A program made the translations under genes and the position numbers. From the NCBI RefSeq assembly GCF_009902005.1, contig NZ_WUTT01000001.1, positions 1,576,541 to 1,640,540 on the forward strand: a stretch of DNA of 64,000 nucleotides, in the 5' to 3' direction. Of this stretch, positions 32,626 through 48,032 are shown piece by piece (positions within the stretch are counted from its first letter, which is position 1; every line of letters starts with the position of its first letter). The DNA comes from Halomonas alimentaria. Its GTDB lineage: Bacteria; Pseudomonadota; Gammaproteobacteria; Pseudomonadales; Halomonadaceae. The notes beneath the pieces were generated by a model. The model searched no databases. It worked only from the letters and a program-made list of their open reading frames with translations, and was not told the DNA's origin.

Positions 32626-33093
32626 CTACCCCTGCAGGTAGATAAACAGGGCAAACCCCACCATCGCCAGCAGGAACAGCGTCAGGCCGATGCGCCGGGT
32701 GGGGATGCGCGACGGGCCGAACTGGGCGAGTTTCGGGTCGTGCGGATCGTAGCGAACCTCCAGCGTCTTGCCGGTGGGGTAGTCCCGCAGCCAGGCCTCG
32801 GCCGCCTCACGCTCAGGGAAGGAGGGCGGCGCATCGAAGCGGCGGTTATCGGTGACGACCGGCCCGCCCGCCACCTCGAAGCGCACTTTCACCCGCGGCA
32901 GGTAGCGCGCCTGCTGCTCGAAGTGCTCACGCCGCTGGGAGTGCTGACGGCGCTCGATGACCTCGGTGGCCACCACCTCGGCCATGGCCCGGGGCCAGGC
33001 GCTGACCGCGCGGCGCCGCCATACGCCGTAACCGGAAAATGCCGCCCCGGCCAGGGCGGCGATGGCGATCAGCAGGGGAACCTGCGACATCAT
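32626..33093 (-). CDS. DUF3592 membrane protein
   Basis: 155-residue protein with transmembrane helices at both ends (residues about 5-22 and 133-152) and a beta-rich periplasmic or extracytoplasmic domain between them, typical of DUF3592: EVVATEVIERRQHSQ, LPRVKVRFEVAGG and PTGKTLEVRYDPHDPKLAQFG. Function is unknown. The MetMet start at 33093/33090 follows AAAGGA. It sits between the nuclease gene and the carboxylate transporter on the same strand, 10 bp after the transporter stop, so co-transcription with the transporter is likely. Confidence 0.75.
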   Translation of the reverse strand: MMSQVPLLIAIAALAGAAFSGYGVWRRRAVSAWPRAMAEVVATEVIERRQHSQRREHFEQQARYLPRVKVRFEVAGGPVVTDNRRFDAPPSFPEREAAEAWLRDYPTGKTLEVRYDPHDPKLAQFGPSRIPTRRIGLTLFLLAMVGFALFIYLQG

Positions 33094-33103
33094 GGAGCAT
33101 CCT

Positions 33104-34582
33104 TTACCAGTAGCCGAGCAGCTTCCACCATAGACCGCCCACCACGACCCAGACCAGCAGGTTGACCACACTCATGATGAAGCCGGCCCGCCACCACTCA
33201 CCGAGCGGTACATAGCCCGAACCGAAGATGACCGGGGAGGTGCCCGTGGCGTAGTGGGTCAGGGTCATCATGATCGAGGAGGCCGCCGCCATGCTCAGCA
33301 CGAACGGCATCGCCGGCGCCCCCATGGCCAGGCCCACGGCCAGAAAGGCTCCCATCATCGCCGTGATATGCGCCGTGGTGCTGGCAAAGAAGTAGTGAGA
33401 GTAGAGAAATACCAGGATCAGCAAGGAGCTCGCGCCAAGCCAGCCCACGCCGGTCTGGGTAATCAGGCCCTCGATAGTGGAGGAGAACCAGGCCACCACA
33501 CCAAGCTGATTAAGCTGCGAGGCCATCATCACCAAGGCACCGAACCACACCAGGGTGTCCCAGGCACTCTTTTCGTTCAGCACGTCCTTCCAGGTCAGCA
33601 CCCCGGTCAGCAGCAGAACGGCGAGGCCGATCAGCGCGGCCGTGGCCGAATGCAACGCAAAGGCATCACCCAGCAGCCAGGCCGGTACCCCTGCCCACAG
33701 CAGCAGCAGCATCACGAACACACCCAGGGTGATCTTCTCATCTCGCTGCATGCGGCCCAGATCGGAGAGCTGCTGGCGGGCAAAGCTCGCCGCGTCTTCG
33801 GTCTTCTTGATCTCGGGGGGATAGAGCAGGTAGAGCACCAGCGGCATCAGCGCGATCGCCGCCAGGCCCGGCAGCAGCATGGCCAGCGCCCAGGTGGTCC
33901 AGCTCAGCGTAATCGCGGCACCGGTGGCTTCGGCAATCAGCTTGACGGTCAGCGGGTTGGGGGCCGTGGCGGTCACGAACATCGCCGAGGTAATGGGGTT
34001 GCTGTGGTAGTTGACCAGTGCCAGGTACTTGCCGATCTTGCCGGTATTCCCGTTCTCGGGGGTCGAACCGAAGCTATGGGCGATCGACTGCATGATGGGG
34101 TGCATGATGCCGCCCCCGCGCGCCGTGTTGCTGGGTGTGACCGGGGCGATCGTCAGCTCGGAGAGCGCCAGGGCATAGCCGATGCCGAGCGTACGCTTGC
34201 CGAATACCGAGATGAAATAGTAGCCGATACGCGAGCCCAGGCCGGTCTTGATCAGGCTGCGGGATATCATGATGGCCACGGCAATCAGCCAGATCAGCGG
34301 GCTGGTGAAGCTGCCCAGCGCATCGCGGATCGCCGTGCCCGGCTGGTCACTGGTGACGCCCGACGCCGCAACCATCGCGATGGCGACGATCGAGAGCGCA
34401 CCGATCGGCATCGCCTTGCCGATGATGGCGGCGATCGTGCCGATGAACATGGCCAGCATCAGCCATCCTTGATCGGAGACTTCGGCAGGCTGGGGCAAAA
34501 GCCAGACCACCAGGCCGACCACGACAGCCACCAGCGCGGGAACCAGCCGCAGGTCCGAGGCGCCTTCGTGAGTTTGGGACAT
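33104..34582 (-). CDS. DASS-family anion (di/tricarboxylate) transporter
   Basis: Inner-membrane carrier of 492 residues with about 12-14 helices, of the divalent anion:Na+ symporter family. The duplicated substrate/Na+ signatures are visible as PVTPSNTARGGGIMHPIMQS and the Ser-Asn-Pro-like YHSNPITSAMFVTATAPNP in the first half, and HYATGTSPVIFGSGYVPLGEWW in the second. This resembles the 2-oxoglutarate/malate or citrate/succinate antiporter subgroup. The ATG at 34582 (MSQTHEGASD) is chosen over 34603 because AGGGAAA lies just ahead. A palindrome AAACT-AA-AGTTT is at 34681-34692. Confidence 0.9.
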   Translation of the reverse strand: MSQTHEGASDLRLVPALVAVVVGLVVWLLPQPAEVSDQGWLMLAMFIGTIAAIIGKAMPIGALSIVAIAMVAASGVTSDQPGTAIRDALGSFTSPLIWLIAVAIMISRSLIKTGLGSRIGYYFISVFGKRTLGIGYALALSELTIAPVTPSNTARGGGIMHPIMQSIAHSFGSTPENGNTGKIGKYLALVNYHSNPITSAMFVTATAPNPLTVKLIAEATGAAITLSWTTWALAMLLPGLAAIALMPLVLYLLYPPEIKKTEDAASFARQQLSDLGRMQRDEKITLGVFVMLLLLWAGVPAWLLGDAFALHSATAALIGLAVLLLTGVLTWKDVLNEKSAWDTLVWFGALVMMASQLNQLGVVAWFSSTIEGLITQTGVGWLGASSLLILVFLYSHYFFASTTAHITAMMGAFLAVGLAMGAPAMPFVLSMAAASSIMMTLTHYATGTSPVIFGSGYVPLGEWWRAGFIMSVVNLLVWVVVGGLWWKLLGYW

Positions 34583-34680
34583 GAACGATTTCCCTGTGAA
34601 CATTGAAAGGAGTCGCCAGGTCGATGGCCTCGCAGGACACTGGTCCTCAACCGAAGCGACACGGCCAAGGTACCAGCATT

Positions 34681-34692
34681 AAACTAAAGTTT
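34681..34692. promoter_or_regulatory. Palindrome in the divergent transporter/ABM-domain promoter region
   Basis: AAACT-AA-AGTTT is an exact 12-bp palindrome in an AT-rich patch between two divergent genes (34583-34805). It may be an operator or the core of a promoter. Nothing else is visible in this gap. Confidence 0.25.
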
Positions 34693-34805
34693 TATTGATG
34701 CAGGTGGGTGTCATAGCGCCAACACCCTGTCCACACAGGGAATCAATGTGGGAGATCGTCGCCCTCGCGCCGTGACGCCCGATTCACTGCCGACAGGAGA
34801 AAGCC

Positions 34806-35126
34806 ATGAAGTACATCTTCGAAGTGCATATCCGCGACGGCTACACCGCCGAGGACTACGCCGACGCCTGGGTGCGCGCCAGCAAGCTGATCCAGCAGGC
34901 GCCGGGCGCACGGGGCACCGAGCTGCACCGCAAGATCGACGACCCCGCCACCCTTATCGCCATCGCCCACTGGGACAGCAAGGCCAGCCGCGACGCCATG
35001 GAAGCTCAGCCGGCGCCCAAGGTGAAGGAGATCATCAGGAGCGCCGCCCCCTTCTGCGAGATCCGCGTGATCGGCGAGTTCGAGGAGCCGGAGTGGGTGG
35101 TGATGCCGCCCCCGGCAAGGTCTTAA
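34806..35126 (+). CDS. ABM-like (antibiotic biosynthesis monooxygenase/dimeric ferredoxin-like) protein
   Basis: 106-residue protein with the small alpha-beta-barrel fold pattern of the ABM/NIPSNAP group: MKYIFEVHIRDGYTAEDYADAW, GARGTELHRKIDDPATLIAIAHWDS and ASRDAME followed by a final strand FCEIRVIGEFEEPEW. Such proteins dimerise; some are monooxygenases or heme-degrading enzymes and many have no known activity. AGGAGAAAGCC precedes the ATG. It lies immediately before the distal end of the CRISPR array and is transcribed towards it, with no obvious functional link. Confidence 0.75.
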   Translation: MKYIFEVHIRDGYTAEDYADAWVRASKLIQQAPGARGTELHRKIDDPATLIAIAHWDSKASRDAMEAQPAPKVKEIIRSAAPFCEIRVIGEFEEPEWVVMPPPARS

Positions 35127-35177
35127 GCCATTCCTACGGTGGCTATTGAGACGCTACTCACGGTATAGCCGCGCAAA

Positions 35178-36853
35178 TGGCTCATCCCCGCGCCTGCGGG
35201 GACCGGCGCACTTGCCATTCCGGAGAGATATACTTATTCGGATCATCCCCGCGCCTGCGAGGACCGGCCGTCAGGCCCGGTCGTCAAGTCGCTGATGGAC
35301 GGATCATCCCCGCTCCTGCGGGGACCGGGGCGGTTGTGGTGGTCATGTATCGCCTCCGGCCGGATCATCCCCGCGCCTGCGGGGACCGGAGCTCCTCCCA
35401 TTGCTTCTGTTCGTCGTAAACAGGATCATCCCCGCGCCTGCGGGGACCGGGCCCGGGCACCACGTCCAGAGTTCCCGAGACACGGATCATCCCCGCGCCT
35501 GCGGGGACCGGAAACAAGCACTTAAAGCGGGGAAGTGCCGAAACGGATCATCCCCGCGCCTGCGGGGACCGGTGGCTCATCATCCCCAGCCGCTGGGCGG
35601 CGCCCGGATCATCCCCGCGCCTGCGGGGACCGGGCGACAAGCTGGCGGCGAGCCGTCATCTGCTGCGGATCATCCCCGCGCCTGCGGGGACCGGCAGCGC
35701 CTGAGTGGGTGGATATTGACGGGGAGCGGATCATCCCCGCGCCTGCGGGGACCGGTTCATCTGGCGCTCTTTGCGCTCGACGTTCTGCGGATCATCCCCG
35801 CGCCTGCGGGGACCGGCGCCATCTCCTCCTGCCCTGGCGGCATACCCGCGGATCATCCCCGCGCCTGCGGGGACCGGACCGATGAGGCGGTGAAACGCCT
35901 GGAGGGTCGCGGATCATCCCCGCGCCTGCGGGGACCGGCGTTCCAGCTTGCCGCGCAGGCCCTCGATGATCGGATCATCCCCGCGCCTGCGGGGACCGGT
36001 CGCAGTCTCAGTCTGCGCCGATCGTCTCACGCGGATCATCCCCGCGCCTGCGGGGACCGGTCCTGCAGGGCCGCGTGATGAGGTGGGGTGGCCGGATCAT
36101 CCCCGCGCCTGCGGGGACCGGGTTCAGACGTTGGCGAGGTCTTGGGTATCGACCGGATCATCCCCGCGCCTGCGGGGACCGGTTTTCTTGCGATCTACAA
36201 GTTTTGTTTGTAGTCGGATCATCCCCGCGCCTGCGGGGACCGGTATTCGGTGATGCCGTCCGTGTAGGTGGCTTGCGGATCATCCCCGCGCCTGCGGGGA
36301 CCGGACTCAGGCGAAGCCACTTTCAAGCGCCTGGTGCGGATCATCCCCGCGCCTGCGGGGACCGGAAGGTGATCAACCGGCAAGGCCGTGGCTACACCGG
36401 ATCATCCCCGCGCCTGCGGGGACCGGGGCATCCGTGATCACAGCACCTCCCTGTGCGCCGGATCATCCCCGCGCCTGCGGGGACCGGTCTTCGCGCTTGG
36501 CGAGGGTGTCGGCAGTGCGCGGATCATCCCCGCGCCTGCGGGGACCGGGATGCGGACGCGGCTTGAACTTGCCATAAGGAAGGATCATCCCCGCGCCTGC
36601 GGGGACCGGCGCACCCCCTGCTTCTTCAGATCGGCAGCCGTCGGATCATCCCCGCGCCTGCGGGGACCGGTGCGTTGGCCTGCTCCTGGGCCTGCTGCTG
36701 GGCGGATCATCCCCGCGCCTGCGGGGACCGGAACAGCGGGGTATAGCCGCGGGCATGCACCTGCGGGTCATCCCCGCGCCTGCGGGGACCGGTTGGCATG
36801 ATCGCGATGCACCGATCCGCAATGCGGGTCATCCCCGCGCCTGCGGGGACCGG
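35178..36853 (-). CRISPR. Type I-E CRISPR array, 28 repeats and 27 spacers
   Basis: Repeats of 29 bp begin at 35178 and recur every 61 bp without exception to 36825-36853; every spacer is 32 bp. The plus strand reads CGGATCATCCCCGC then GCCTGCGGGGACCGG, which is the reverse complement of the crRNA. The crRNA strand is therefore minus, with a CCCCGC...GCGGGG stem and an ATGATCCG handle, as in E. coli type I-E. The leader is at the right end beside cas2. The three leader-distal repeats (35179, 35240, 35301) each carry a different substitution; the two leader-proximal ones (36765, 36826) share GGGTCAT instead of GGATCAT. The base before the 28-bp core is C in 25 of 28 copies. Spacer targets are not identifiable here. 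Confidence 0.99.
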
Positions 36854-36959
36854 ACTAATTGTAGCCACTTGTTTAAAAAGAAGAAAATCTCCAGAGGAAA
36901 CTCCACCAGCGATTTTGCTTACTTTTTAACCAGACCTTCTTGTTAAAGATCTAATAAAA
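36854..36959 (-). promoter_or_regulatory. CRISPR leader
   Basis: A 106-bp AT-rich stretch, in sharp contrast to its surroundings, joins the cas2 stop to the first repeat. It should contain the array promoter and the integration signals. No canonical IHF site (WATCAANNNNTTR) is present within 60 bp of the first repeat, where E. coli has one. The closest match (36958-36970, one mismatch) is about 105 bp away. Promoter elements are not clear enough to place. Confidence 0.75.
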
Positions 36960-38178
<1,219 letters not shown>

Positions 38179-38204
38179 CTCGGCCTCCCTGCCTTGAGGT
38201 AGCG

Positions 38205-38897
38205 CTATGGACGCCGCAGCAGCAGCAGACCACAGCCGAACGCCTTGGCGCGCCCCACCCCTTGCGCCAGAGTCTCGATCAGCCGGCCCGGTTCGGTGAC
38301 TTCCAGCAGGCCCTCGTAGTCGACGCTGGAGAAGCGAATCGGGCGGCCCTTCTCTTTCGACAGGGCGTGCTGGCGATAGGCCCCCACTTCCGGGGCTACC
38401 GGCAGGCGGAAGCCCCAGGCCCCGGCACGCTCCTCGAGCCAGCCTCGCGCGGCGGCATCCATCGCGTCGGCGCACGCCTGACTTTTCCTGTCTCCGCCCG
38501 ACTCGAAGGGGTACTTGGCGGCCATCAGGACATCGGCGCGCCGCCCTCGCTGGCCCGCCACCGGTTTCGCTACCGTGGGATTGGCCCGAAGACGAAAGGC
38601 GAGCCTCTCTCCAGCCTCCAGCACCGGAGAAAACGGCTTGCACTGTGCCTCGAGCAGCCCATCCACCGGTCGAGGCTCGCGATCAGACAGCACGTAGAAC
38701 AGCGGCAGTCCTTTCGGCGCTCTATCGTCGCTGATCTCCTCCATTTCCTGTCGAAACAGGAACGGACGCGCGCCCTGGTGTCCCGGAAACAACCGCCAGA
38801 GCAACTGGTGGGCGGCATAGGCCCGACCATCCATGATGTCGAACAAGTCCCCTCGCGAGAGGCCATTGAGATCGACACGCACTCGAGAAAGGTACAT
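38205..38897 (-). CDS. cas6e: Type I-E pre-crRNA endoribonuclease Cas6e
   Basis: 230-residue Cas6e/CasE that cuts the repeat hairpin and stays on the crRNA 3' end. Tandem ferredoxin-like folds are suggested by MYLSRVRVDLNGL and a C-terminal glycine-rich loop, GVGRAKAFGCGLLLLRR. The candidate catalytic histidine is in AYAAHQLLWRLFP (His29/30 region), equivalent to His20 of E. coli. Its ATG overlaps the cas5e stop in a TGATG. The array repeat shows the hairpin this enzyme expects. Confidence 0.95.
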   Translation of the reverse strand: MYLSRVRVDLNGLSRGDLFDIMDGRAYAAHQLLWRLFPGHQGARPFLFRQEMEEISDDRAPKGLPLFYVLSDREPRPVDGLLEAQCKPFSPVLEAGERLAFRLRANPTVAKPVAGQRGRRADVLMAAKYPFESGGDRKSQACADAMDAAARGWLEERAGAWGFRLPVAPEVGAYRQHALSKEKGRPIRFSSVDYEGLLEVTEPGRLIETLAQGVGRAKAFGCGLLLLRRP

Positions 38898-39652
38898 CAG
38901 CGCTCCTCCCCTGCTCGGGTCACGCGGCGATACTCGGTACGTGGGCCAAACTGCCAGCGGCGGCGATTGAGTGGATCATCCCAGGCTTCACTGGACTCCA
39001 CGCCGCGACCATTGCCGTCCAGAAGCTCCGCCGCGCCCTCCCAGGCATAGAGCACGTTTTCCGGCAGCCTCAAGACCCTGCGCTCCTCGCCCGGCTCCTT
39101 GCCGGATAGCGATGGAAAGTCGACATCCAGGGCGTCTCGCAATCGAGCGAACGTCCGCCGACTCGGTGCAAGGGGCGCTCCCGGCGGGCACGCCTTGCGC
39201 CCCAGGTAGAGCGGGAAGTACGGCGTCTTGAGTGCTTGTTCCAGGTCCTCCAGCGCCACCTCCGCCTGTGGTGTCAGCCAGAGGGCGACGGTCCACAGGC
39301 CGTCACAGCGGTAGTCGCGGCTGGAGAGGATGGTGTGGATGACCTTCGTCGGAGCATTCAATTCGTCTCGCCGCGTGCGGTAGGTCACCTTGGACTGCGA
39401 CGCCGGGACCTGCACCGTGTGGTAGTCGCGCAGCAGGCTGCCGGGAGAGCGTTGCTTGATGGCGATGCCGAGGCTGTCGCGCAGGCGACGCTGCCCTTCG
39501 TCGTCATCGCGGCGCACCCCCAGCGCCGCGCCGAGCAGCCCGATGATGGCGCTTCGCCCCGGGTAGGAAGCGGTCGGGCGCGACTCGCCCACCGCCGCCT
39601 CGCCCCAGCTGGCGAGCGGCGCATAGAGCCGAAAGACCAGATACTCCGTCAT
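38897..39652 (-). CDS. cas5e: Type I-E Cascade subunit Cas5e
   Basis: 251-residue Cas5e/CasD, which binds the 5' handle of the crRNA in Cascade. Typical beginning MTEYLVFRLYAPLASWGEAA and glycine-rich RPTASYPGRSAIIGLLGAALG are present; DYHTVQVP and TYRTRRDELNAPTKVIH follow, and FPLYLGRKACPPGAPL is the later signature. AAGGAG precedes the ATG at 39652 at good distance; a GTG at 39658 is possible. It lies 9 bp after cas7e and overlaps cas6e by one base. Confidence 0.95.
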   Translation of the reverse strand: MTEYLVFRLYAPLASWGEAAVGESRPTASYPGRSAIIGLLGAALGVRRDDDEGQRRLRDSLGIAIKQRSPGSLLRDYHTVQVPASQSKVTYRTRRDELNAPTKVIHTILSSRDYRCDGLWTVALWLTPQAEVALEDLEQALKTPYFPLYLGRKACPPGAPLAPSRRTFARLRDALDVDFPSLSGKEPGEERRVLRLPENVLYAWEGAAELLDGNGRGVESSEAWDDPLNRRRWQFGPRTEYRRVTRAGEER

Positions 39653-39661
39653 GACCACTCC

Positions 39662-40735
39662 TTACTGCTCGCTGGACAGGAACTCGACCAGCTCGGCAAG
39701 GCTGCCCATGCGCACGCCGCCGGCCAGCTGTGGTTCCCGATAGTCGGGGTCGGCCGCCACGACGAAACGCTGATCGGCACCGGGGCCATAGGCTTCGTCG
39801 AAGGCCCGTGCCTGTCGCTCCAGGCGGGCGATGGCATCCAGTGCCTGATCCTGTCCGGCCACGGGGCGCAGGAAGGCAGCCGAGAGTGAGCGCGGCTGCT
39901 GCTCACCCGTCTCGGCCAGCACATAACTGGCGTGGGCGCGAGAGCCGAAGCTGTTCTGCTTGCCCTTTGGCGAGGTCTTCACGGCGGCCTCCACCAGGGC
40001 CGCGATAGCTCGATCGGCCAGCGCCTCGTCACCGCCCAGGTTCTCGATCAGCTGGCGGCGATCGATGCAGACATACCCGTAGAAGAGACCGGCACCGAAG
40101 CCGGCCTCGCCGACGTGAGCCGCGCCGCGATGCTCATCGCCACTGTTCAGATCGTCCACGGCAGTGAAGTAATCATCCTCTACCTCGGCGGCATGCACCG
40201 TGATGGCATGAGCCACTTGGCAGGCGGCCTCGACGTTATAGGCCGGCGACGCCGCCAGCATGCGGCCGAACAGTGCAATATCCACGGCCGAGGGATTGTG
40301 GCGCAGCAGGTCAAGGTCTTCCTTCTCCGGCGCCCGCTGCTCGTCGGCCAGCCTCTCGACCAGAGCATCGACGGCCGCCTGCTCCTCGGGGCCGACGTGG
40401 ACCAGTTGGCTGGTTTCCAGCTCACCCTTGGCCACGTCGCCGAAGACCTTGGCAATCTCCACGGCCCACGCCTTGGCGTCTTTCTCCTTCACGCCCTTTT
40501 CCTGCAGGCGCGCGGCAGCCTGGACGCCCACCTGTTTGGTACGCATGCCGCGGTGCTGACCCACGGCGTCCTCGAACAGGGCCGAGGTTCGCCAAGTACG
40601 CTTGAGGCTCTGCGACGAGACGCGCAGGCGCTTGGCGCCGCCCATGATGGCGGTCTTGGGCCGACCCAGGTCGTCGCGGTTAAGGTTGGCCGGCGGATAG
40701 GCGGTGAGCAGGTGCAGTTGGATGAAGTGGCTCAT
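39662..40735 (-). CDS. cas7e: Type I-E Cascade backbone subunit Cas7e
   Basis: 357-residue Cas7e/CasC, six copies of which form the crRNA-binding backbone. The beginning MSHFIQLHLLTAYPPANLNRDD is diagnostic, followed by KTAIMGGAKRLRVSSQSLKRTWR. The palm/thumb segments HVGEAGFGAGLFYGYVCIDR and KTSPKGKQNSFGSRAHASYVLAE are conserved in type I-E. The start at 40735 is chosen from this N-terminus; the upstream open frame overlaps cse2. The gap to cse2 is 29 bp. Confidence 0.96.
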   Translation of the reverse strand: MSHFIQLHLLTAYPPANLNRDDLGRPKTAIMGGAKRLRVSSQSLKRTWRTSALFEDAVGQHRGMRTKQVGVQAAARLQEKGVKEKDAKAWAVEIAKVFGDVAKGELETSQLVHVGPEEQAAVDALVERLADEQRAPEKEDLDLLRHNPSAVDIALFGRMLAASPAYNVEAACQVAHAITVHAAEVEDDYFTAVDDLNSGDEHRGAAHVGEAGFGAGLFYGYVCIDRRQLIENLGGDEALADRAIAALVEAAVKTSPKGKQNSFGSRAHASYVLAETGEQQPRSLSAAFLRPVAGQDQALDAIARLERQARAFDEAYGPGADQRFVVAADPDYREPQLAGGVRMGSLAELVEFLSSEQ

Positions 40736-40764
40736 GGAATTTGCTCCCTGTCGTGGTTGACGGC

Positions 40765-41421
40765 TCATGGGGTGTCTTGCCGGTAGCCGGCGGCGGCACC
40801 GAAGTAGTCGTTGGCCCAGATGAAACCGAGTCGCTGTGTCGGCTTGGGTGACACTCCACCCTGGTACTCCTGCCACCACAGTGCGATGTCGTCGGCCAGA
40901 TGAACGACGCTAACACCGCGCTTGTCGATCAGCGCGAGAGCACGGCGCAGGCGCTGAACCAGCTCCTCCGGCGTGCGTGACGTCATCAGTTGCTGAAAGC
41001 GCAGCTCGCTCATGCAAGGCTTGCCGGTTTCACGCTTCTGCTGGCCGAGAGCAGTCCCTAGCGGCATCCTGGGGCGCTCTTCACGCAGCTCGGCTACCAC
41101 CAGAGCGATGCAGGACCAGGCCTGAAGCCGCCGATTGCGCCGCCATTCGGGCTCGCCCCCCGTGTCCGGAAGCTGATGCCAGAGGTGGCGAAACGCCTCT
41201 GTCAGCATCGCCGCCTCGTTGGTGTCGCACCGCCTCAGCGTCGCCCTCAGGCCCTTTGGCCAGGGCGGAAGGGAAATGTGCGCCTTGAGCGCCTCTGCCG
41301 GCAGCGTCAGGCGCTGCCACCAGCGCCGCAGGGCATCGGCCTCGCTGCGCTCGATGGCATGGAGCCGTTCCGGCACGCGCGGTGGCGCCTCGGCTTCGGG
41401 GGCAAGTTGCGATTCACTCAC
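40765..41421 (-). CDS. cse2: Type I-E Cascade small subunit Cse2
   Basis: 218-residue Cse2/CasB, predicted all-helical, present as a dimer along the Cascade belly. Conserved stretches are AEALKAHISLPPWPKGLRATLRRC, WSCIALVVAELREERPRMPLG and MSELRFQQLMTSRTPEELVQRLRRAL, with DIALWWQEYQ near the C-terminus. It starts with GTG (41421), overlapping the cse1 stop in a 4-bp GTGA. No ATG gives a better start. Confidence 0.93.
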   Translation of the reverse strand: MSESQLAPEAEAPPRVPERLHAIERSEADALRRWWQRLTLPAEALKAHISLPPWPKGLRATLRRCDTNEAAMLTEAFRHLWHQLPDTGGEPEWRRNRRLQAWSCIALVVAELREERPRMPLGTALGQQKRETGKPCMSELRFQQLMTSRTPEELVQRLRRALALIDKRGVSVVHLADDIALWWQEYQGGVSPKPTQRLGFIWANDYFGAAAGYRQDTP

Positions 41422-43100
41422 GGCACGCTCTCCTCGGTGGCTGCCGGCGCGGCGGTCAGGCTAAAGCCGCCGCTCTCGGCAAATTCACGAATGGCTTTGC
41501 TGCCCTTACTGCGCCCGGCCAGAAAGCCCTGCAACTGACGTCGCGCCGAGGTGGCACGCTTGAGGTCCGCCGCCTCCAGCGCCCCGCTCAGCGCCTGCTC
41601 CTCGAACAGCGCCATCCCCTCTCGCCTGAGCGTGCGATACCAGCGCTTGGCCACCTCGGAAGGCGGATGCAAGGCATCTTCATCGGCCGCCAACGCCGCC
41701 TGGAAACTCTGCAGGACGTGAAAGAAGGCGCCCTGCGTCGCATCAAAGAACGCCAGATCGAGGTGGCTCATGTCGCCCTTGGCATCGGCAGGCCGATCGA
41801 ACCAGGCATTCTTGATCTGGGTGCGCACCATCCAGGCAATCTGCCGGGACAGGTCGGTGAACTGCTGGACCCAGGCGCGCAGCCGCTCCTGCTGTGTGGG
41901 CGGCACCGCCACCAGCGGCATCTCGACGCCGTACCAGCCGCGGGGCTTCATGTTGTCCATGTCGTAACCGAAGGCCCAGAGCCGAGCGTGCTTGAGCAGC
42001 ACCACTACCTCCTCTCCGGCACGGCGCTCCTCATCGACGGTCTGCACCTTGCGGGAGACGTAGTCCTGAACGGCCAGGGCGGGGAGCGCACCGCTGCCAT
42101 CGGCGTCCTGCAGCACCAGGTTGGGCCAATGCTGATACCCCAGGCCGCCGGGCTGGCCCTTGGTGGACAGCGGCGGCTCACTGGGCTTCTTGGGATCGCG
42201 GCGATAGGGCGTCAGCGGATGCAGCCAGGGGCCGTCATAGTTGAGGCCCTGCTTCTTGGCACGGATGCGGCGCACGGCGCGCGCGGTGTCGCGACCACAG
42301 AGGTCACAGCGGCACGATTCGTCCTCGAAGAGCAGCCGGAAGCGTCGAGGCATCGACCAAAAAGGGTGCAGCGGATGCATGCTCTCGGGCAGGGTCTCGC
42401 TTCCCTTCCTGTCGCTGACACGGGTCGGCGCCATCCACGGAAAAAGTCTGTCGTAATCGGCTCGTGGAAGCTGCCAGGACTGCCCGGAACGGGTCAGCGC
42501 CCTGGGTGTGACGACGTTCAGCCACAGCCGAGACCATAGGCTGGCATCGGCCGAGTCCGGCAATACCAGCGTGGTCAGCGGACCGCCGCCGCGCAGGCCG
42601 ACGCGAATGCCCGCTCCGCCCGCCGGGGCATTGATCTGCATGGTGAACAGGGCAAGCGCCGCACAGTCTTCGCACATCGCCGCGACGCGCCCGCGCTTCA
42701 CGAAGAAGTCGGTGTTGTTCTTGATGCCGTTGGCGCCCGGCGCATCGATCAGCAGGCCGCTGACCGTGGCCTCCTTGACGTCCTCGAGCGGATCGAGATC
42801 CTGCATAAAGCGCGGCCCGTCGCCATCCAGCTCGAAGGCGGTGGCGAAGGGCGCAAAGGCGGCCTCAAGATCAGCGACGCCAGGCGGCTCGATAAAACGA
42901 TCCAACCAGTCGCCGTGGTCTTCCGGCGGCAACGCCGTCTGCAGCAGGCCGATCAGGAACTGGTAGGCCGCGCCCTGGAAGTCGGCCCGAGGCAGGGCGA
43001 GATCGACGATCTCGGGATCAGCCACCGCGCTGGACGGCCGGTAGACGATAGCGCCGCCCCTGGTGCGAAAAGGCAGCCACGGATCATTGAGCAGGTTCAC
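41418..43100 (-). CDS. cse1: Type I-E Cascade large subunit Cse1
   Basis: 560-residue Cse1/CasA, the subunit that recognises PAM and recruits Cas3. The beginning MNLLNDPWLPFRTRGG is diagnostic. Further conserved parts are FMQDLDPLEDVKEATVSGLLIDAPGANGIKNNTDFF (which bears the L1 loop) and a CxxC pair in CRCDLCGRDTARAV. HLDLAFFDATQGAFFHVLQ and the four-helix C-terminal bundle follow. The start at 43100 lies 17 bp inside the end of cas3. The protein is full length and shows no damage, unlike cas3. Confidence 0.95.
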   Translation of the reverse strand: MNLLNDPWLPFRTRGGAIVYRPSSAVADPEIVDLALPRADFQGAAYQFLIGLLQTALPPEDHGDWLDRFIEPPGVADLEAAFAPFATAFELDGDGPRFMQDLDPLEDVKEATVSGLLIDAPGANGIKNNTDFFVKRGRVAAMCEDCAALALFTMQINAPAGGAGIRVGLRGGGPLTTLVLPDSADASLWSRLWLNVVTPRALTRSGQSWQLPRADYDRLFPWMAPTRVSDRKGSETLPESMHPLHPFWSMPRRFRLLFEDESCRCDLCGRDTARAVRRIRAKKQGLNYDGPWLHPLTPYRRDPKKPSEPPLSTKGQPGGLGYQHWPNLVLQDADGSGALPALAVQDYVSRKVQTVDEERRAGEEVVVLLKHARLWAFGYDMDNMKPRGWYGVEMPLVAVPPTQQERLRAWVQQFTDLSRQIAWMVRTQIKNAWFDRPADAKGDMSHLDLAFFDATQGAFFHVLQSFQAALAADEDALHPPSEVAKRWYRTLRREGMALFEEQALSGALEAADLKRATSARRQLQGFLAGRSKGSKAIREFAESGGFSLTAAPAATEESVP

Positions 43101-45791
43101 ATCCCTCTCCCTGATTTTCCGTTGTCATGGAGAACCGCACGCCCCACAGGGCGTCGTAGGCGCAGACAGGGTCGTCCTCGACCAGCCAGGGGCGGGTGAA
43201 GCGCAGCGCCTTGTGGCGCTCCTGAAGAGCCTCCCAGCGGGCCTGGTCGCCGGCCGGCAGGTCCGCCAGCTTCTCTGCCTGGCTCTGGCGCAGTTTTACC
43301 TGGCTAAGCATGGCCGCGTAGCGCTCGCCTTCGGCCCATAGCGCCAGCTCATCGTCGGCATCACGTTTCAGCAACACGACGTTCACCGTCGGCTCGTCGA
43401 CCAGCCGCGTGCCGATCTCTCGCTCCTCCTGCCACTGGTCGATCTCGGGCTGGCGAAGATAGCCCTGCTCGAGCGACAGGGCGTTGAAGTGAGCCATGGA
43501 GACGGCCACCCCCTGCATGCCGCGCTGCTCCCACCTGGCTTCCTGGAGGCCATCCGGCACCAGCTCGGCGACACTGCCGTAGACGCCCTCGATCAGCGCC
43601 CGCGCCTCCTCGGGCATGCGGATCGCCCCAAGCTCACGCAGCACGCGCTGGGTCAGCCACAGCAGGGAGGTATCGCGATAGACCGCCTGGGTGCCTGGAA
43701 GGGCACGCTTCAGCCACTGGGCATCCGGCGCTTCGCTCCACTCTGGCGCCAACACGGACAGCACAGGCGCACGGCGCGGGCCGCGTACATGGCGCTGCAG
43801 GCGCCCGGCGCGCTGAATCAGCAAGTCGATGGGCGCCAGATCGCTGATCAGGAGATCCACGTCGCAGTCGAGCGATTCCTGGAAGACCTGGGTACTGACC
43901 AGCACCTGACCGCGACGCCTATCGGGCGTGGAGGCCTTGCCCAGCCGCTCGAGGACGTCCGATTCGATACGCTGTCGATCCACCATCGCGAAGCGGCTAT
44001 GGAACAGCAGGCAGCGTTCGGGATCGGGGTGGCTTTGGCGTAGCTGCTCATAGGCGCGAATGGCGTCGTCCACGGTGTTGCGCACCCAGGCGACGCACTC
44101 CCCCGCCTCGACCGCCGCCATTACGATCTCGAGCGCTTGCTTCTCCGCGGTCAGCCAGTCGATGCCCACCGTTCGGGTCACTTCGGGACGTGTTGCCAGA
44201 GGGACTTCTCTCTGGGTAGCGCGACCGACCTGGGTCAACAACGGGAATGCGTCCTCCTCCAGGGTGGCCGGCGCCAGCTCCAACCCCTGGCGCCATGCCG
44301 CAACGAGCTCTTCGCGCATGCTATACGGCAATGTGGCCGTCAGCAGGATGGCACTGCCGCCCTGACGGGCATGGTGGGCAAGCAGCTGATTGAGCAGGGT
44401 CTGCATGTAGTGGTCGTAGGCATGTACCTCATCGACGATCAACACCTTGCGCGCCAGGCCGAACAGGCGCAGCGACTGGTGCCGAAACGGCAGCAACCCC
44501 ATCAGCGCTTGGTCGATGGTTCCATCCCGACATCGGCCAGCAGCGACTTCTTGCGAGAGTCGGCCAGCCAGCGGTTGCAGCGCGTGGTCGCGGTCATGTC
44601 GTCGGCTGCGTAGTCACGGTCTTCCGGCTGCGCCGACGCCACGGCCTGCATGAAGACGTCGTTCAGTTCCCGGGCCCCGTGGGCCAGCACGCAGGAGGGA
44701 CGCGAAGCCTCAGTATAGAAGCGATGATGCAAGCGGCCGAGACGCTCATACATGGCGTTGGAGGTCGCCATGGTGGGCAGAGCGAAGTAGAGCCCATCGC
44801 CATGCCCGCCGGCGAGCAACCGCTGATTGAGAATGCAGGCTGCCTCGGTCTTGCCGGAACCGGTGATGTCTTCGCAAATGAACAGCTGAGGACCTTCACC
44901 GATGGGTAGGGTTTCGGCCTCTCGCTGCAGTGGAGTTGGCGTAACCGACTCGCCACCGAACCAACTGGCCAGACCGCCATAGGGTATAGGCTCGGGAGGG
45001 TGCGCGAACCCGGTGTCCTGTAGTGCTCGCTCGGCGCGCCCGAGCGCTAGAGGCCAGTAATCGGCCAGCGGCATCACTTCTTGACAGTAGATGAAATAAT
45101 CCCGATTCGACCCCAGCCAGTCACTGAGGGTAGCCCAGCCAGCCACCGTCCAGCTCATGGCCAGAAAAGCATCCCGCCACTGCGGGGAGACCAGCTTGTC
45201 GACCGGCCAGTCAAGTTCGATCAGAGCAGCCCAGTCGGCAGTGAATTGCCGCGCGGCCTCACAATCAGAGGCATCGTCGTCTTGGCCGAAGAACTGGGAC
45301 AGACCCAGTTTTCCGGCTTCCACCGGCTGGCCGTGATGGCCAAACATCGGCGCCAGAACCACGCGGAGCGTCTCGCTGAGCTCCCGTCGTGCCTTGTGGT
45401 CGAGGTCACCACCGGGCCAACGCAGCGTGTCGTCTCGTAGCCACTCGATCCAGGATGCCTGCCAGAGCAGAGCGCCAAGGCGGTCATGGCGCTCGGTATA
45501 GGCCAGTCGCTCGATAGGTGCCACCAGTTCGACTCCTTCCGGACGAGCCAGCCCCTGGAAGGCGCGCGCGAACTTGCCCATGTCATGCAGGCCCAGCAGA
45601 AACACGAGGAATTGCCGCAAGGAGTCGGGAGACAGGCCGAGCTGGGACGCCAATCGCTGGGACAGGGGCCGCTCCGGGGCAAGCAAGTGCCAGCCCACTG
45701 CCGCCACATCCAGGCTGTGATAAGGCAGCAGATGGCAGCTATCGCCTTCATCCGATGGTTGGGCCTTGCCCCAATAGAGGTAATACGACAT
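43084..45791 (-). pseudogene. cas3: cas3 helicase-nuclease, split by a one-base frameshift
   Basis: Cas3 is the HD-nuclease/SF2-helicase that degrades DNA marked by Cascade. The two parts are 429 codons (45791-44502: HD motif LLGLHDMGKFARAFQ, Walker A DITGSGKTEAA) and 472 codons (44502-43084: DEVHAYD, SAILLTATLP, LLIQRAGRLQR). Together they give about 901 residues, normal for type I-E. The break is at 44522-44523. The frame reads LLADVG then MEPSTKR and stops, where homologues continue VGTxDQ; adding one base (for example restoring GGG) gives VG(M/I)GTIDQALMG. The first part ends in TGA that overlaps the ATG of the second (TGATG), so reinitiation could make two polypeptides. It may be a mutation, a sequencing error or a coupled split protein. 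Confidence 0.85.
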
Positions 45792-45941
45792 CCCTGTCTC
45801 TCTTCTTTATGGTGTCGGTACATCCATACAAGCACCCTTAACCTTACTTCGCCACCTACTGGCCATCCGACCAGCGTACTCTTCAACCCGGTTGTGACTT
45901 TCGTCATGCTGAGTCTTCACCACGGAAGGAAGGAAGCCTCC
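45792..45941. promoter_or_regulatory. Divergent promoter region of cas3 and the WYL regulator
   Basis: This 150-bp gap separates the two divergent starts. An inverted pair CTGG (45859-45862) and CCAG (45871-45874) spaced by 8 bp, and GGTG (45811-45814) with CACC (45833-45836), are the only candidate operator elements seen; both are weak. No clear sigma70 elements can be assigned. Confidence 0.35.
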
Positions 45942-46811
45942 ATGTCAGCGACCACCGCACTCCCCTGGGACACCCTGGCCCGCTATCGGCTGATCGAAAT
46001 TCTGGCGCTGTGGGAGGGTCGTGTGGTGGCCGCGCAGATCGGTGAGGCCTTCGACATCGGGCGCCAGCAGGCACAGAAGGTACTGCGTCGCTATCGGGAA
46101 CTGGTCCCCGGGAATCTGGCCTATGACGAGTCGCGTAAGGGCTTCCTGCCGACCACACGGTTCGCACCGTCCTTCACCCAAGGTCGGGTCGAGGAGTACC
46201 TTCATCTACTGGGCGTCCACCGGCAGCTGGCATCGCCGTTCACGGGACTGGGACTCGGCGCGGCGAACACGGAAGCACTGCCGCTGCCGAGCCGCATGGT
46301 GTCGCCGCAGGTGGTGCGGGAAGTGGTCAAGGCCGCCCGCGGTGCTCAGCGCCTGGAGGTCACCTACGCCTCCTTCACCAGCCCCACCGGTGAGGAGCGG
46401 ATCATCGTGCCGCATACGCTGGTGTTCGCGGCGGGGCGCTGGCATGTGCGGGCCTTCTGCGAGAAGCATCGCGACTATCGGGATTTCGTTCTGAGCCGCT
46501 TCCGCGGCATACCGGAGTCGTGTGGCGATATGCTCGGCGAGCACGGGATCGCCGAGGACTCGGCCTGGCATACCCGGGTAGACGTGTGCCTGATACCCGA
46601 CAGGCGGCTGCCACCCCGGGAAAGGGCCCTGATCGCCACGGACTATGGGATGGACGACGGTGAACTCAATCTGTCATGCCGGGGCCCGCTGGTGCTCTAC
46701 GCGCTGCGCGAATTGGGCGTGAATCCCCATCATGTGGAAACCGAACCACGGGCCCAGCAGGTCGAGATAGCCAATGCCCAGACACTGGCACCCTGGATCC
46801 ACTGGAGCTAG
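45942..46811 (+). CDS. WYL-domain transcriptional regulator next to the cas operon
   Basis: 289-residue regulator. A winged helix-turn-helix occupies about residues 1-85 (LARYRLIEILALWEGRVVAAQI, DIGRQQAQKVLRRYRE). The central WYL domain runs from about 120 to 200, with VTYASFTSPTGEERIIVPHTLVFAAGRWHVRAFCEKHRDYRDFVLSRF; the name motif is here WHV. A WCX-like C-terminal region follows (LIATDYGMDDGELNLSCRG). WYL proteins bind nucleic acids or nucleotides and often repress neighbouring defence genes; divergent placement from cas3 suggests that role here. The start at 45942 follows GGAAGGAAG. Confidence 0.88.
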   Translation: MSATTALPWDTLARYRLIEILALWEGRVVAAQIGEAFDIGRQQAQKVLRRYRELVPGNLAYDESRKGFLPTTRFAPSFTQGRVEEYLHLLGVHRQLASPFTGLGLGAANTEALPLPSRMVSPQVVREVVKAARGAQRLEVTYASFTSPTGEERIIVPHTLVFAAGRWHVRAFCEKHRDYRDFVLSRFRGIPESCGDMLGEHGIAEDSAWHTRVDVCLIPDRRLPPRERALIATDYGMDDGELNLSCRGPLVLYALRELGVNPHHVETEPRAQQVEIANAQTLAPWIHWS

Positions 46812-46859
46812 ATGATACGGCAGGGTGCCTTGGCCCGCCCGTGAGGCTAGAGTAGCTCC

Positions 46860-47999
46860 ATGACCTCCCCTCCCGATAAACCGCCTCGCCGCCGCGCCCT
46901 GGTGGCGCTGAGTGGTGATATCTCCGGTGCCTTCGGCGACCTTGGCACCCTGCTGCCCTATGTGATCGCCGGTATCGGGCTGGGCGTGCTGGCGCCCGGG
47001 GCGGTGTTTCTGGGCTTCGCGGCGGGCTACCTGCTGGTGGCACTCGTCTATCGCGCGCCCATCGCCGTGCAGCCGATGAAGGCGCTGGGCGCGGTGATCC
47101 TTACCGGCGGGCTCACCGCCGCCGAGACGGCCCTGGCCGGTGCCCTGCTGGGCCTGGTGCTGCTGGCGCTGTCTGCCACACCACTGCTGGGGCGCGCCGC
47201 CCGTGCCCTGCCGCAATCGGTGGTCACCGGACTGCAGGCCGGCCTGGGGCTGATGCTCGCCGCGTTGGCGCTGGAGATGATGGCCACCGGCTGGTGGCTG
47301 GCCCTGCCGGCCATGGCAGTGCTCGCCCTCTCCTGGGTCTGGCCTCGCGGGCCCTGGGCACTGGGAGTGATCCTCGCGGCCATCTGGCTGGCACCGACTG
47401 ACGGCCAACCACTGGTATCGGAAACGGCCATTATCGCCGATGGGCTATCGCTGACCGCGGTGGCTGGCGGAATGCTGGCCCAGTTGCCGCTGACCCTGCT
47501 CAACGCCGTGGTGGTGGCCACCGCCGTGTCCCATTCGCTGTTTCCGGACGCCGTTCCCCGCGTCAGCGAGCGCCGCCTGGCCGCCTCCAGCGGCCTGCTC
47601 AACCTGGTGCTGGCGCCGTTGGGTGCCATGCCGATGTGCCACGGCGCCGGCGGCCTGGCCGCTCACTACCGCTTCGGTGCCCGCAGCTGGGTCGCTCCGC
47701 TGACCATGGCCGCGGCCTGCGCCCTGGCCGCGCTGCAGGGCGAGGCGGTGGTCGCCTGGCTGGCGGCGATTCCCGTCCCGGTGGTGGGCGCCCTGCTGGC
47801 CTTCGCCGGGGTGGAGCTGATGCTGGGCAAGCGCCTCTTCGACGCCCGGCCCGACTGTCGGCCGGTGATCGCGGTCACCGCGGTGGCCACCCTGTTCGGT
47901 AGCGTCCTGATCGGGCTGACGGCGGGCCTTGCCAGCGAGCAGCTGCGCCGGCATCTTGTACGCAGGCGTGCCCGCGGCACGCCCCACGACAGGGGCTGA
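46860..47999 (+). CDS. Molybdate/sulfate transporter, MOT1 family
   Basis: 379-residue inner-membrane transporter with 10-12 hydrophobic helices. Two MOT1 signatures are present: SGDISGAFGDLGTLLPYVIAG near the N-terminus and LGAMPMCHGAGGLAAHYRFGA in the second half. MOT1 proteins take up molybdate at low concentration, and a molybdate-binding molbindin gene follows 33 bp later, supporting molybdate rather than sulfate. The start at 46860 gives MTSPPDKPPRRRALVAL; the gap to the WYL gene is 48 bp on the same strand, but no functional link to CRISPR is apparent. Confidence 0.85.
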   Translation: MTSPPDKPPRRRALVALSGDISGAFGDLGTLLPYVIAGIGLGVLAPGAVFLGFAAGYLLVALVYRAPIAVQPMKALGAVILTGGLTAAETALAGALLGLVLLALSATPLLGRAARALPQSVVTGLQAGLGLMLAALALEMMATGWWLALPAMAVLALSWVWPRGPWALGVILAAIWLAPTDGQPLVSETAIIADGLSLTAVAGGMLAQLPLTLLNAVVVATAVSHSLFPDAVPRVSERRLAASSGLLNLVLAPLGAMPMCHGAGGLAAHYRFGARSWVAPLTMAAACALAALQGEAVVAWLAAIPVPVVGALLAFAGVELMLGKRLFDARPDCRPVIAVTAVATLFGSVLIGLTAGLASEQLRRHLVRRRARGTPHDRG

Positions 48000-48032
48000 C
48001 GCCCCACCCACTAAAAGGACAGGAGAGCAGGG

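What the first reader, a model, noticed from the sequence alone, without database searches (positions are those of the whole stretch)
43084..45791. cas3 split by one base in an otherwise intact type I-E locus
A single missing base at 44522-44523, within the segment that should read VG(x)GTIDQAL, separates HD and Walker A from DEVH and the C-terminal helicase half. All catalytic motifs are present in the two parts and the rest of the operon is undamaged. The stop of the first part and the ATG of the second form TGATG, so reinitiation could produce a two-piece Cas3; alternatively the system still adapts and makes Cascade but cannot cut (a natural CRISPRi-like or decoy state).
Basis: partly seen in the sequence, partly recalled or inferred. 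Interest (0 to 1): 0.65.

Follow-up and report, generated by a model that had tools for sequence, protein, structure and literature searches.

The report
Broken cas3 in a CRISPR locus
A salt-loving bacterium carries an otherwise complete type I-E CRISPR immune system whose DNA-cutting gene, cas3, lacks one base and is most likely dead; this is an ordinary kind of immune-system decay, here seen in one genome only.

Summary
In this Halomonas genome cas3 is two abutting frames, 44502-45791 and 43084-44502 (minus strand), one base short between the blocks homologous to intact Cas3; the exact base within 44518-44531 is ambiguous. The other seven I-E cas genes and a 27-spacer array look sound.

It is best explained as a private, recent loss-of-function mutation. 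In 54 other family genomes with this cas3 none is split here. No second Cas3 was found. dN/dS of the 3' part is close to that of intact relatives, so the lesion looks young. It is the only frameshift I recognised among genes compared over 464 kb, so a sequencing error is less likely but not excluded.

The two-piece idea is weak. TGATG follows automatically from a conserved Leu-Met codon pair (39 of 51 named loci). No slippery site was found. The invariant GTxDQxL segment of RecA1 is in neither piece. cas3 pseudogenes beside nearly intact I-E loci are known from Salmonella.

In passing: the close relative G077 holds an apparently intact type I-F cassette in the same slot.

The parts
44502..45791 (-). 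cas3 5' part: HD nuclease domain, Walker A, to the motif Ic region; 429 aa, last 6 residues out of frame
   Evidence: PF18019 Cas3_HD 2.1e-38; PDB relatives 4q2c, 6c66, 4qqw
43084..44502 (-). cas3 3' part: DEVH box, RecA2 and C-terminal domain; 472 aa from an internal Met
   Evidence: (TIGR01587 cas3_core 5.3e-49)
44518..44531 (-). site of the missing base (position ambiguous inside this stretch), with an adjacent non-synonymous change at an invariant Val
44500..44504 (-). TGATG: stop of the first part overlapping ATG of the second
41418..43100 (-). cse1/cas8e, unbroken
   Evidence: TIGR02547 1.5e-113
40765..41421 (-). cse2/cas11, unbroken
   Evidence: TIGR02548 1.5e-38
39662..40735 (-). cas7e, unbroken
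   Evidence: TIGR01869 6.1e-102
38897..39652 (-). cas5e, unbroken
   Evidence: PF09704 1.9e-42
38205..38897 (-). cas6e, unbroken
   Evidence: TIGR01907 5.9e-43
37258..38178 (-). cas1e, unbroken
   Evidence: TIGR03638 2.8e-113
36960..37256 (-). cas2e, unbroken
   Evidence: TIGR01873 1.6e-38
36854..36959 (-). putative leader between cas2 and the array (position only; not tested)
   Evidence: sequence; inference
35178..36853 (-). CRISPR array: 28 repeats of 29 nt, 27 spacers of 32 nt; the only place in the genome with this repeat at up to 3 mismatches
45852..46811 (+). divergent WYL-domain regulator next to cas3 (host flank, shared with G077)
   Evidence: PF13280

Best explanation
A real, recent, private frameshift has inactivated cas3 in an otherwise intact type I-E CRISPR-Cas locus of a Halomonas. 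Shown: the split, the unbroken neighbours, no other Cas3 found, the integrity of cas3 at this point in all sampled relatives that carry it except one decayed locus, and near-normal dN/dS in the 3' part. Inferred: ribosomes stop a few codons after the lesion, the N-terminal fragment (HD plus half of RecA1) and at most some C-terminal fragment do not form an active helicase-nuclease, so Cascade can still bind targets but DNA is not degraded and primed adaptation is off; naive Cas1-Cas2 acquisition could persist. The loss needs no special selection: it looks like early decay by drift or relief from the cost of immunity.
For: Split confirmed. Unique: among 55 of 275 family genomes with this cas3 at E <= 1e-100, the frame holding the 3' part is 861-992 aa in the 54 others and 509 aa here. 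47 of 51 named loci are strictly uninterrupted, one more (L050) has only an ambiguous base. No second Cas3: the four other cas3_core hits are RecG, Mfd, DbpA and RhlE-type helicases. V423, G424, T425, D427, Q428 and L430 are invariant in 36 of 36 aligned Cas3 and mostly lost from both products; AF2 of the intact H. ventosae Cas3 puts strand 421-425 and helix 426-433 there. No slippery site. Recency: dN/dS of the 3' part is 0.177, 0.144, 0.158 for three G000 pairs against 0.108-0.171 for five intact pairs. Only frameshift recognised in 464 kb. No self target found (with a cap).
Against: One genome only; no second isolate of the species and no reads were available. Nothing was measured on expression. 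Normal sequence on both sides would also be seen if the base were a sequencing error. The cas3 5' part has a long terminal branch (9.4% of tree length against 3.9% for the other genes), which I put down to recombination; its dN/dS is not raised (0.122-0.132). One G000 pair (0.177) slightly exceeds all intact pairs, and three private changes at invariant columns fall in cas3 and none in the other seven genes, so some relaxation is possible.
Confidence: 0.73

Rival explanations
1. Sequencing or assembly error: cas3 is intact in the living strain.
For: A single base in a stretch with short G runs; the 3' part evolves almost normally and HD, Walker A and DEVH are kept; no reads were available.
Against: Of G077 genes with a match of 65% or more in 464 kb, 121 of 128 are full length in one frame, and none of the 8 odd non-cas3 cases inspected (from all three relatives) was a broken G000 gene (8 further partial matches, lacking mainly N-terminal residues, were not inspected). 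No homopolymer longer than 3 at the site. A second, invariant-site change lies beside the deletion, so the error would have to be complex.
Confidence: 0.19
2. Two-piece Cas3: translation ends at TGA, restarts at the overlapping ATG, and the two fragments assemble into a working enzyme.
For: TGATG is a classical coupling geometry (recalled) and coupling does not need a Shine-Dalgarno; both fragments are conserved up to the break.
Against: TGATG pre-exists: the Leu-Met codons are CTG-ATG or TTG-ATG in 39 of 51 named loci and would give TAATG in 6 more. The split is inside RecA1, not between domains; GTxDQxL is in neither product. None of 54 family relatives shares the split.
Confidence: 0.04
3. 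Selected nuclease-free state: Cascade kept as a binding-only repressor or decoy (natural CRISPRi).
For: All Cascade genes unbroken. E. coli with cas3 knocked out and Cascade switched on works as CRISPRi (PMC5109708, abstract).
Against: No spacer with a good match in its own genome was found (best full-length-like matches have 6 and 7 mismatches), though for spacers 1-7 and 15-21 only 40 of 86 and 40 of 100 first-look candidates were scored. Some spacers match prophages of related species, several with AAG PAMs, i.e. ordinary immunity. The lesion looks young, so kept genes need no explanation.
Confidence: 0.04

Closest known systems
cas3 and cse1 pseudogenes beside apparently intact E. coli-subtype (I-E) loci in Salmonella (Touchon and Rocha 2010, PMC2886076, passages seen)
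   Same: Inactivated cas3 with the remaining cas genes apparently intact; both cas3 and cse1 pseudogenes in 9 of 16 Salmonella genomes
   Different: Here a single-base frameshift in one Halomonas, cse1 unbroken
Halomonas eurihalina MS1 cas3 (locus L030)
   Same: cas3 alone broken, rest of I-E operon unbroken
   Different: Nonsense codon at Trp34 instead of a frameshift near codon 423
Type I-A style separate Cas3'' (HD) and Cas3' (helicase) (recalled)
   Same: Cas3 activities on two polypeptides, if both were made
   Different: There the cut is between domains; here inside RecA1
Engineered cas3 knock-out CRISPRi in E. coli (PMC5109708, abstract seen)
   Same: Cascade without Cas3
   Different: Engineered, with chosen spacers; no self-targeting spacer found here

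Membership tests
Type I-E CRISPR-Cas | cas3-cse1-cse2-cas7-cas5-cas6-cas1-cas2 gene set of the I-E subtype | tested here: met
Type I-E CRISPR-Cas | 29-nt repeats, 32-nt spacers, AAG-type PAM at protospacers | tested here: met
   (AAG for spacer 20 in two genomes and for weaker spacer 18 matches in two; AAA for its best match; not AAG for spacers 2, 3, 15, 21, 22). AAG as the I-E PAM is recalled
Type I-E CRISPR-Cas | single-chain Cas3 helicase-nuclease encoded | tested here: not met
Type I-E CRISPR-Cas | target interference in vivo | not testable with these tools
   needs an assay
Decayed I-E locus (cas3 pseudogene) | frame-disrupting lesion in cas3, uninterrupted orthologues in relatives | tested here: met
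Decayed I-E locus (cas3 pseudogene) | no replacement Cas3 in the genome | tested here: met
Functionally split Cas3 | break at a domain boundary | tested here: not met
   AF2 model of intact relative: break in RecA1 strand 421-425 (local pLDDT about 50-63)
Functionally split Cas3 | architecture conserved in relatives | tested here: not met
   0 of 54 other family genomes with the gene
Programmed -1 frameshift gene | slippery heptamer in the overlap | tested here: not met

The most novel reading that the evidence does not exclude
The strain makes a working Cas3 from two polypeptides, coupled by TGATG and joined by fragment complementation inside the RecA1 domain.
Probability: 0.04. Interest if true: 0.6.

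Novelty: new member of a known kind. Interest (0 to 1): 0.22.

Why it matters
As a finding it is a clean example of an early step in loss of a type I CRISPR system: only the nuclease gene is hit, and so recently that the other cas genes are still unbroken. It would make a natural cas3-null for testing whether Cascade alone has any effect. If the two-piece reading were right it would show an unexpected split-tolerant site in Cas3, but the evidence is against it. The apparent exchange of I-E and I-F cassettes in one chromosomal slot, seen beside it, may be the more useful lead.

Tried and rejected
Self-targeting as the driver of cas3 loss: 27 spacers against the whole own genome gave no match near full length besides the array (where 40 of 93 first-look candidates were scored). 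Repeated in four groups: spacers 8-14 (30 of 30 scored) and 22-27 (34 of 34) none; spacers 1-7 (40 of 86) and 15-21 (40 of 100) none among those scored. Best approximate matches have 6 and 7 mismatches; in 464 kb scanned exhaustively only one match at 7 or fewer. Unsupported, with that limit.

Back-up Cas3: the four other cas3_core hits are RecG, Mfd, DbpA and RhlE-type helicases.

Programmed frameshifting: no heptamer, longest run 3.

Shine-Dalgarno argument against reinitiation: dropped. The internal ATG has a 3-nt match, but so has the native cas3 start in the same test.

Recombination at the lesion: DNA identity to H. ventosae is 0.72-0.74 in 45791-44792 and 0.79-0.94 in the 250-nt windows after it; the break is about 260-270 nt from the lesion, so I do not link them.

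Relaxed selection: among 48 sequences three private changes at otherwise invariant columns fall in cas3 and none in the other seven genes, a weak hint; among the 16 closest the split is 9 in cas3 and 16 in the rest, within the range of the others. Four loci were dropped before that count (L027 incomplete, L050 ambiguous base, L072 and L076 decayed).

Phage records: the array against 50,697 phages gave 68 records, 40 of them listed, all at E 0.1; the unlisted 28 include 4 with short matches of 95% or more (not looked at). Plasmids: 123 records, 30 listed, which look like matches to other arrays; the rest not looked at. Spacers 1, 2 and a degenerate spacer 18 have no exact match in viral contigs (3 of 27 spacers tried). 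cas3 has no near match in plasmids.

Literature: searches. I saw no report of this Halomonas lesion or of a split Cas3 of this kind in those listings; only open-licence papers are held. The place of motif Ic is from PMC8001533 (passages); treating GTxDQxL as a conserved segment is my own reading.
Full report
WHERE IT IS. The window is C1:1576541-1640540 of a 3.285-Mb genome in 17 contigs, C1 being 3.267 Mb. By record title 42 of 51 named relatives of its Cas3 are Halomonas or genera I recall as Halomonadaceae, so the host is taken to be a Halomonas; its name is not shown.

THE OBSERVATION. cas3 is two frames on the minus strand, 44502-45791 (429 aa) and 43084-44502 (472 aa), sharing one base in TGATG. 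The first matches the Cas3 HD domain and Walker A region, the second the helicase core from DEVH on. In the named relatives with an uninterrupted cas3 the two homologous blocks are 21 nt apart (GTIDQAL); here 20 nt. One base is missing in 44518-44531. At the same spot an otherwise invariant Val is changed (V423M as read in the first frame). The remaining cas genes are unbroken and of subtype I-E, and the array has 28 repeats and 27 spacers.

HOW UNUSUAL IT IS. Among 275 genomes of the family, 55 including this one have the gene at E <= 1e-100; the open frame holding its 3' part is 861-992 aa in the 54 others and 509 aa here. Five of the 54 show one stop inside the matched stretch; four of these (G040, G076, G091, G113) I take to be named loci whose alignment runs past the natural stop (L063, L065, L031, L059), and G225 was not looked at. 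In the genus set 23 of 90 genomes had a match at E <= 0.001, of which 20, this one included, are orthologues at 64% or more. Of 51 named loci, many from the same genomes, 47 pass a strict test of one open frame; L050 has one ambiguous base; L030 (H. eurihalina MS1) has a stop at codon 34 with the rest of the operon unbroken; L072 (V. lionensis) lacks the cas3 start in frame and has cas7 in three frames; L076 (H. olivaria) has cas3 and several other genes in more than one frame. Some flags are not lesions: L031, L041 and L065 (alignment past the natural stop), L027 (contig end). A partial cas2 match in L069 and the single stops flagged in cse2 and cas1 of L072 were not pursued.

IS IT REAL? The best control available was frame integrity over 464 kb around the window against candidate genes of three relatives. 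Of those with a match of 65% or more, full length in one frame are 121 of 128 for G077, 43 of 49 for G057 and 79 of 83 for G087 (from 190, 138 and 134 candidates). The rest were 5 split-like and 12 partial cases, one of the partial ones being cas3. I inspected the 5 splits and 3 partials: by codon-position GC and reading frame I judge that none is a broken gene of this genome. The other 8 partials lack mainly N-terminal residues and were not inspected. A sequencing error therefore looks unlikely but remains possible.

HOW OLD IS IT? dN/dS of the 3' part is 0.177, 0.144 and 0.158 for this genome against H. ventosae (L026), H. stenophila (L028) and H. beimenensis (L048), and 0.108-0.171 for five pairs of intact relatives; for the 5' part 0.122-0.132 against 0.099-0.182. 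With L048 as outgroup, the values give dN of about 0.033 on this branch and 0.042 on that of H. ventosae (my arithmetic). So the gene has not evolved freely for long, though 0.177 is the highest of the eight values. The 5' part has a longer branch (9.4% of tree length; 3' part 5.0%, other genes 3.9%), but its first kilobase is less like H. ventosae (0.72-0.74) than the next windows (0.89, 0.84), which points to recombination.

CAN TWO PIECES WORK? First, TGATG need not be an adaptation: the Leu-Met pair at this place is CTG-ATG in 28 and TTG-ATG in 11 of 51 named loci, so the same shift would make TGATG in 39 and TAATG in 6 more. Second, there is no slippery heptamer and no run over 3 in the overlap. 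The internal ATG has only a 3-nt Shine-Dalgarno match, but the native cas3 start has no better one in that test, and coupling would not need it. Third, residues V423, G424, T425, D427, Q428 and L430 are invariant in 36 aligned Cas3; the first piece leaves its frame at them and the second starts after them. In an AF2 model of the intact H. ventosae Cas3 (pTM 0.73; Foldseek top hits are solved Cas3) the break lies in strand 421-425 and the next helix of RecA1, though local confidence is only about 50-63. The RKK at 413-415, which I match to motif Ic (NKK 411-413 of E. coli Cas3, PMC8001533, passages), stays in the first piece.

WHAT THE SYSTEM DID. Spacers 15, 20 and 22 match one 10-kb stretch of a lambda-like prophage in G057 with 2, 2 and 4 mismatches; PHROGs names integrase, excisionase, repressor, O-like and P-like proteins there. 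Spacer 20 has AAG next to its target there and in G053; spacers 15 and 22 have AGG and GGT. Spacer 18 matches G022 (AAA, 2 mismatches), G030 and G084 (AAG, 4 and 5 mismatches); whether those lie in prophages was not tested. One search scored only 5 candidates per genome, so more targets may exist. Shuffled spacers gave 0.05 matches at 7 or fewer mismatches per 464 kb on one strand. No comparable match was found in the own genome (all candidates scored for 13 of 27 spacers, 40 of 86 and 40 of 100 for the other two groups). The array thus seems to record ordinary immunity against phages of related Halomonas.

MECHANISM. Most likely Cascade and Cas1-Cas2 are made and Cas3 is not functional. In E. 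[quoted passage not shown] By analogy this strain should bind but not destroy targets. That step is inferred.

KNOWN OR NEW. cas3 and cse1 pseudogenes beside otherwise intact I-E loci are described in Salmonella (PMC2886076, passages), cas gene frameshifts in Corynebacterium striatum I-E loci (cse1, cas7; cas3 'cleaved' in one isolate; PMC9944170, passages) and a truncated cas3 in a Moritella I-F locus (PMC5399434, passage). This is a further member of that kind.

BESIDE IT. Against the close relative G077 (93% at a nearby gene; G069 is nearer at 95%), window 33000-48000 is homologous at 33000-35108 and 45830-46805; between them this genome has the I-E cassette and G077 has 17.4 kb with Cas1f, Cas3f, Csy1-Csy4 of type I-F and repetitive frames that look like an array (not tested). 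The cassette borders therefore agree to within about 65 nt on one side and 12 nt on the other. Whole CRISPR-Cas cassettes seem to be exchanged at this slot; the direction was not resolved.

The probability of the two-piece reading was made the same (0.04) in both places.

Noticed in passing
window 35108-45830; G077:C24:180830-198236 (L111, L112): Close relative G077 carries a type I-F CRISPR-Cas cassette in the slot where this genome has type I-E, with flanks 92-93% identical: apparent whole-cassette exchange.
   Followed up: partly
L030:7810-7812: Halomonas eurihalina MS1 cas3 has a TGA at the conserved Trp34 with the rest of the I-E operon unbroken: a second, independent cas3-only lesion.
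   Followed up: partly
L076 and L072: H. olivaria TYRC17 and V. lionensis RHS90 have several broken I-E cas genes; decay or assembly errors.
   Followed up: no
window 44790-45791: First kilobase of cas3 is less like H. ventosae than the rest of the operon; probable recombination break near 44800.
   Followed up: partly
L175:7645, 9148, 17052 (G057:C5): Three spacers match one lambda-like prophage of a near relative, one of them about 40 nt beyond the end of its integrase gene.
   Followed up: partly
window 36764-36853: The two repeats next to cas2 share a T-to-C variant absent from the other 26, as expected if the newest repeat was copied from a mutated first repeat.
   Followed up: no
window 44874-44876 (Cas3 residue 306): A Leu just before Walker A, invariant in 47 other loci, is Cys here.
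   Followed up: no
window 45852-46811: Divergent WYL-domain regulator beside cas3; a homologue (partial in 3) lies upstream of cas3 in 18 of 51 named loci.
   Followed up: no
L024 (G087:C28): G087 has a second, distant Cas3 homologue (35% identity, 877-aa frame) on another contig.
   Followed up: no
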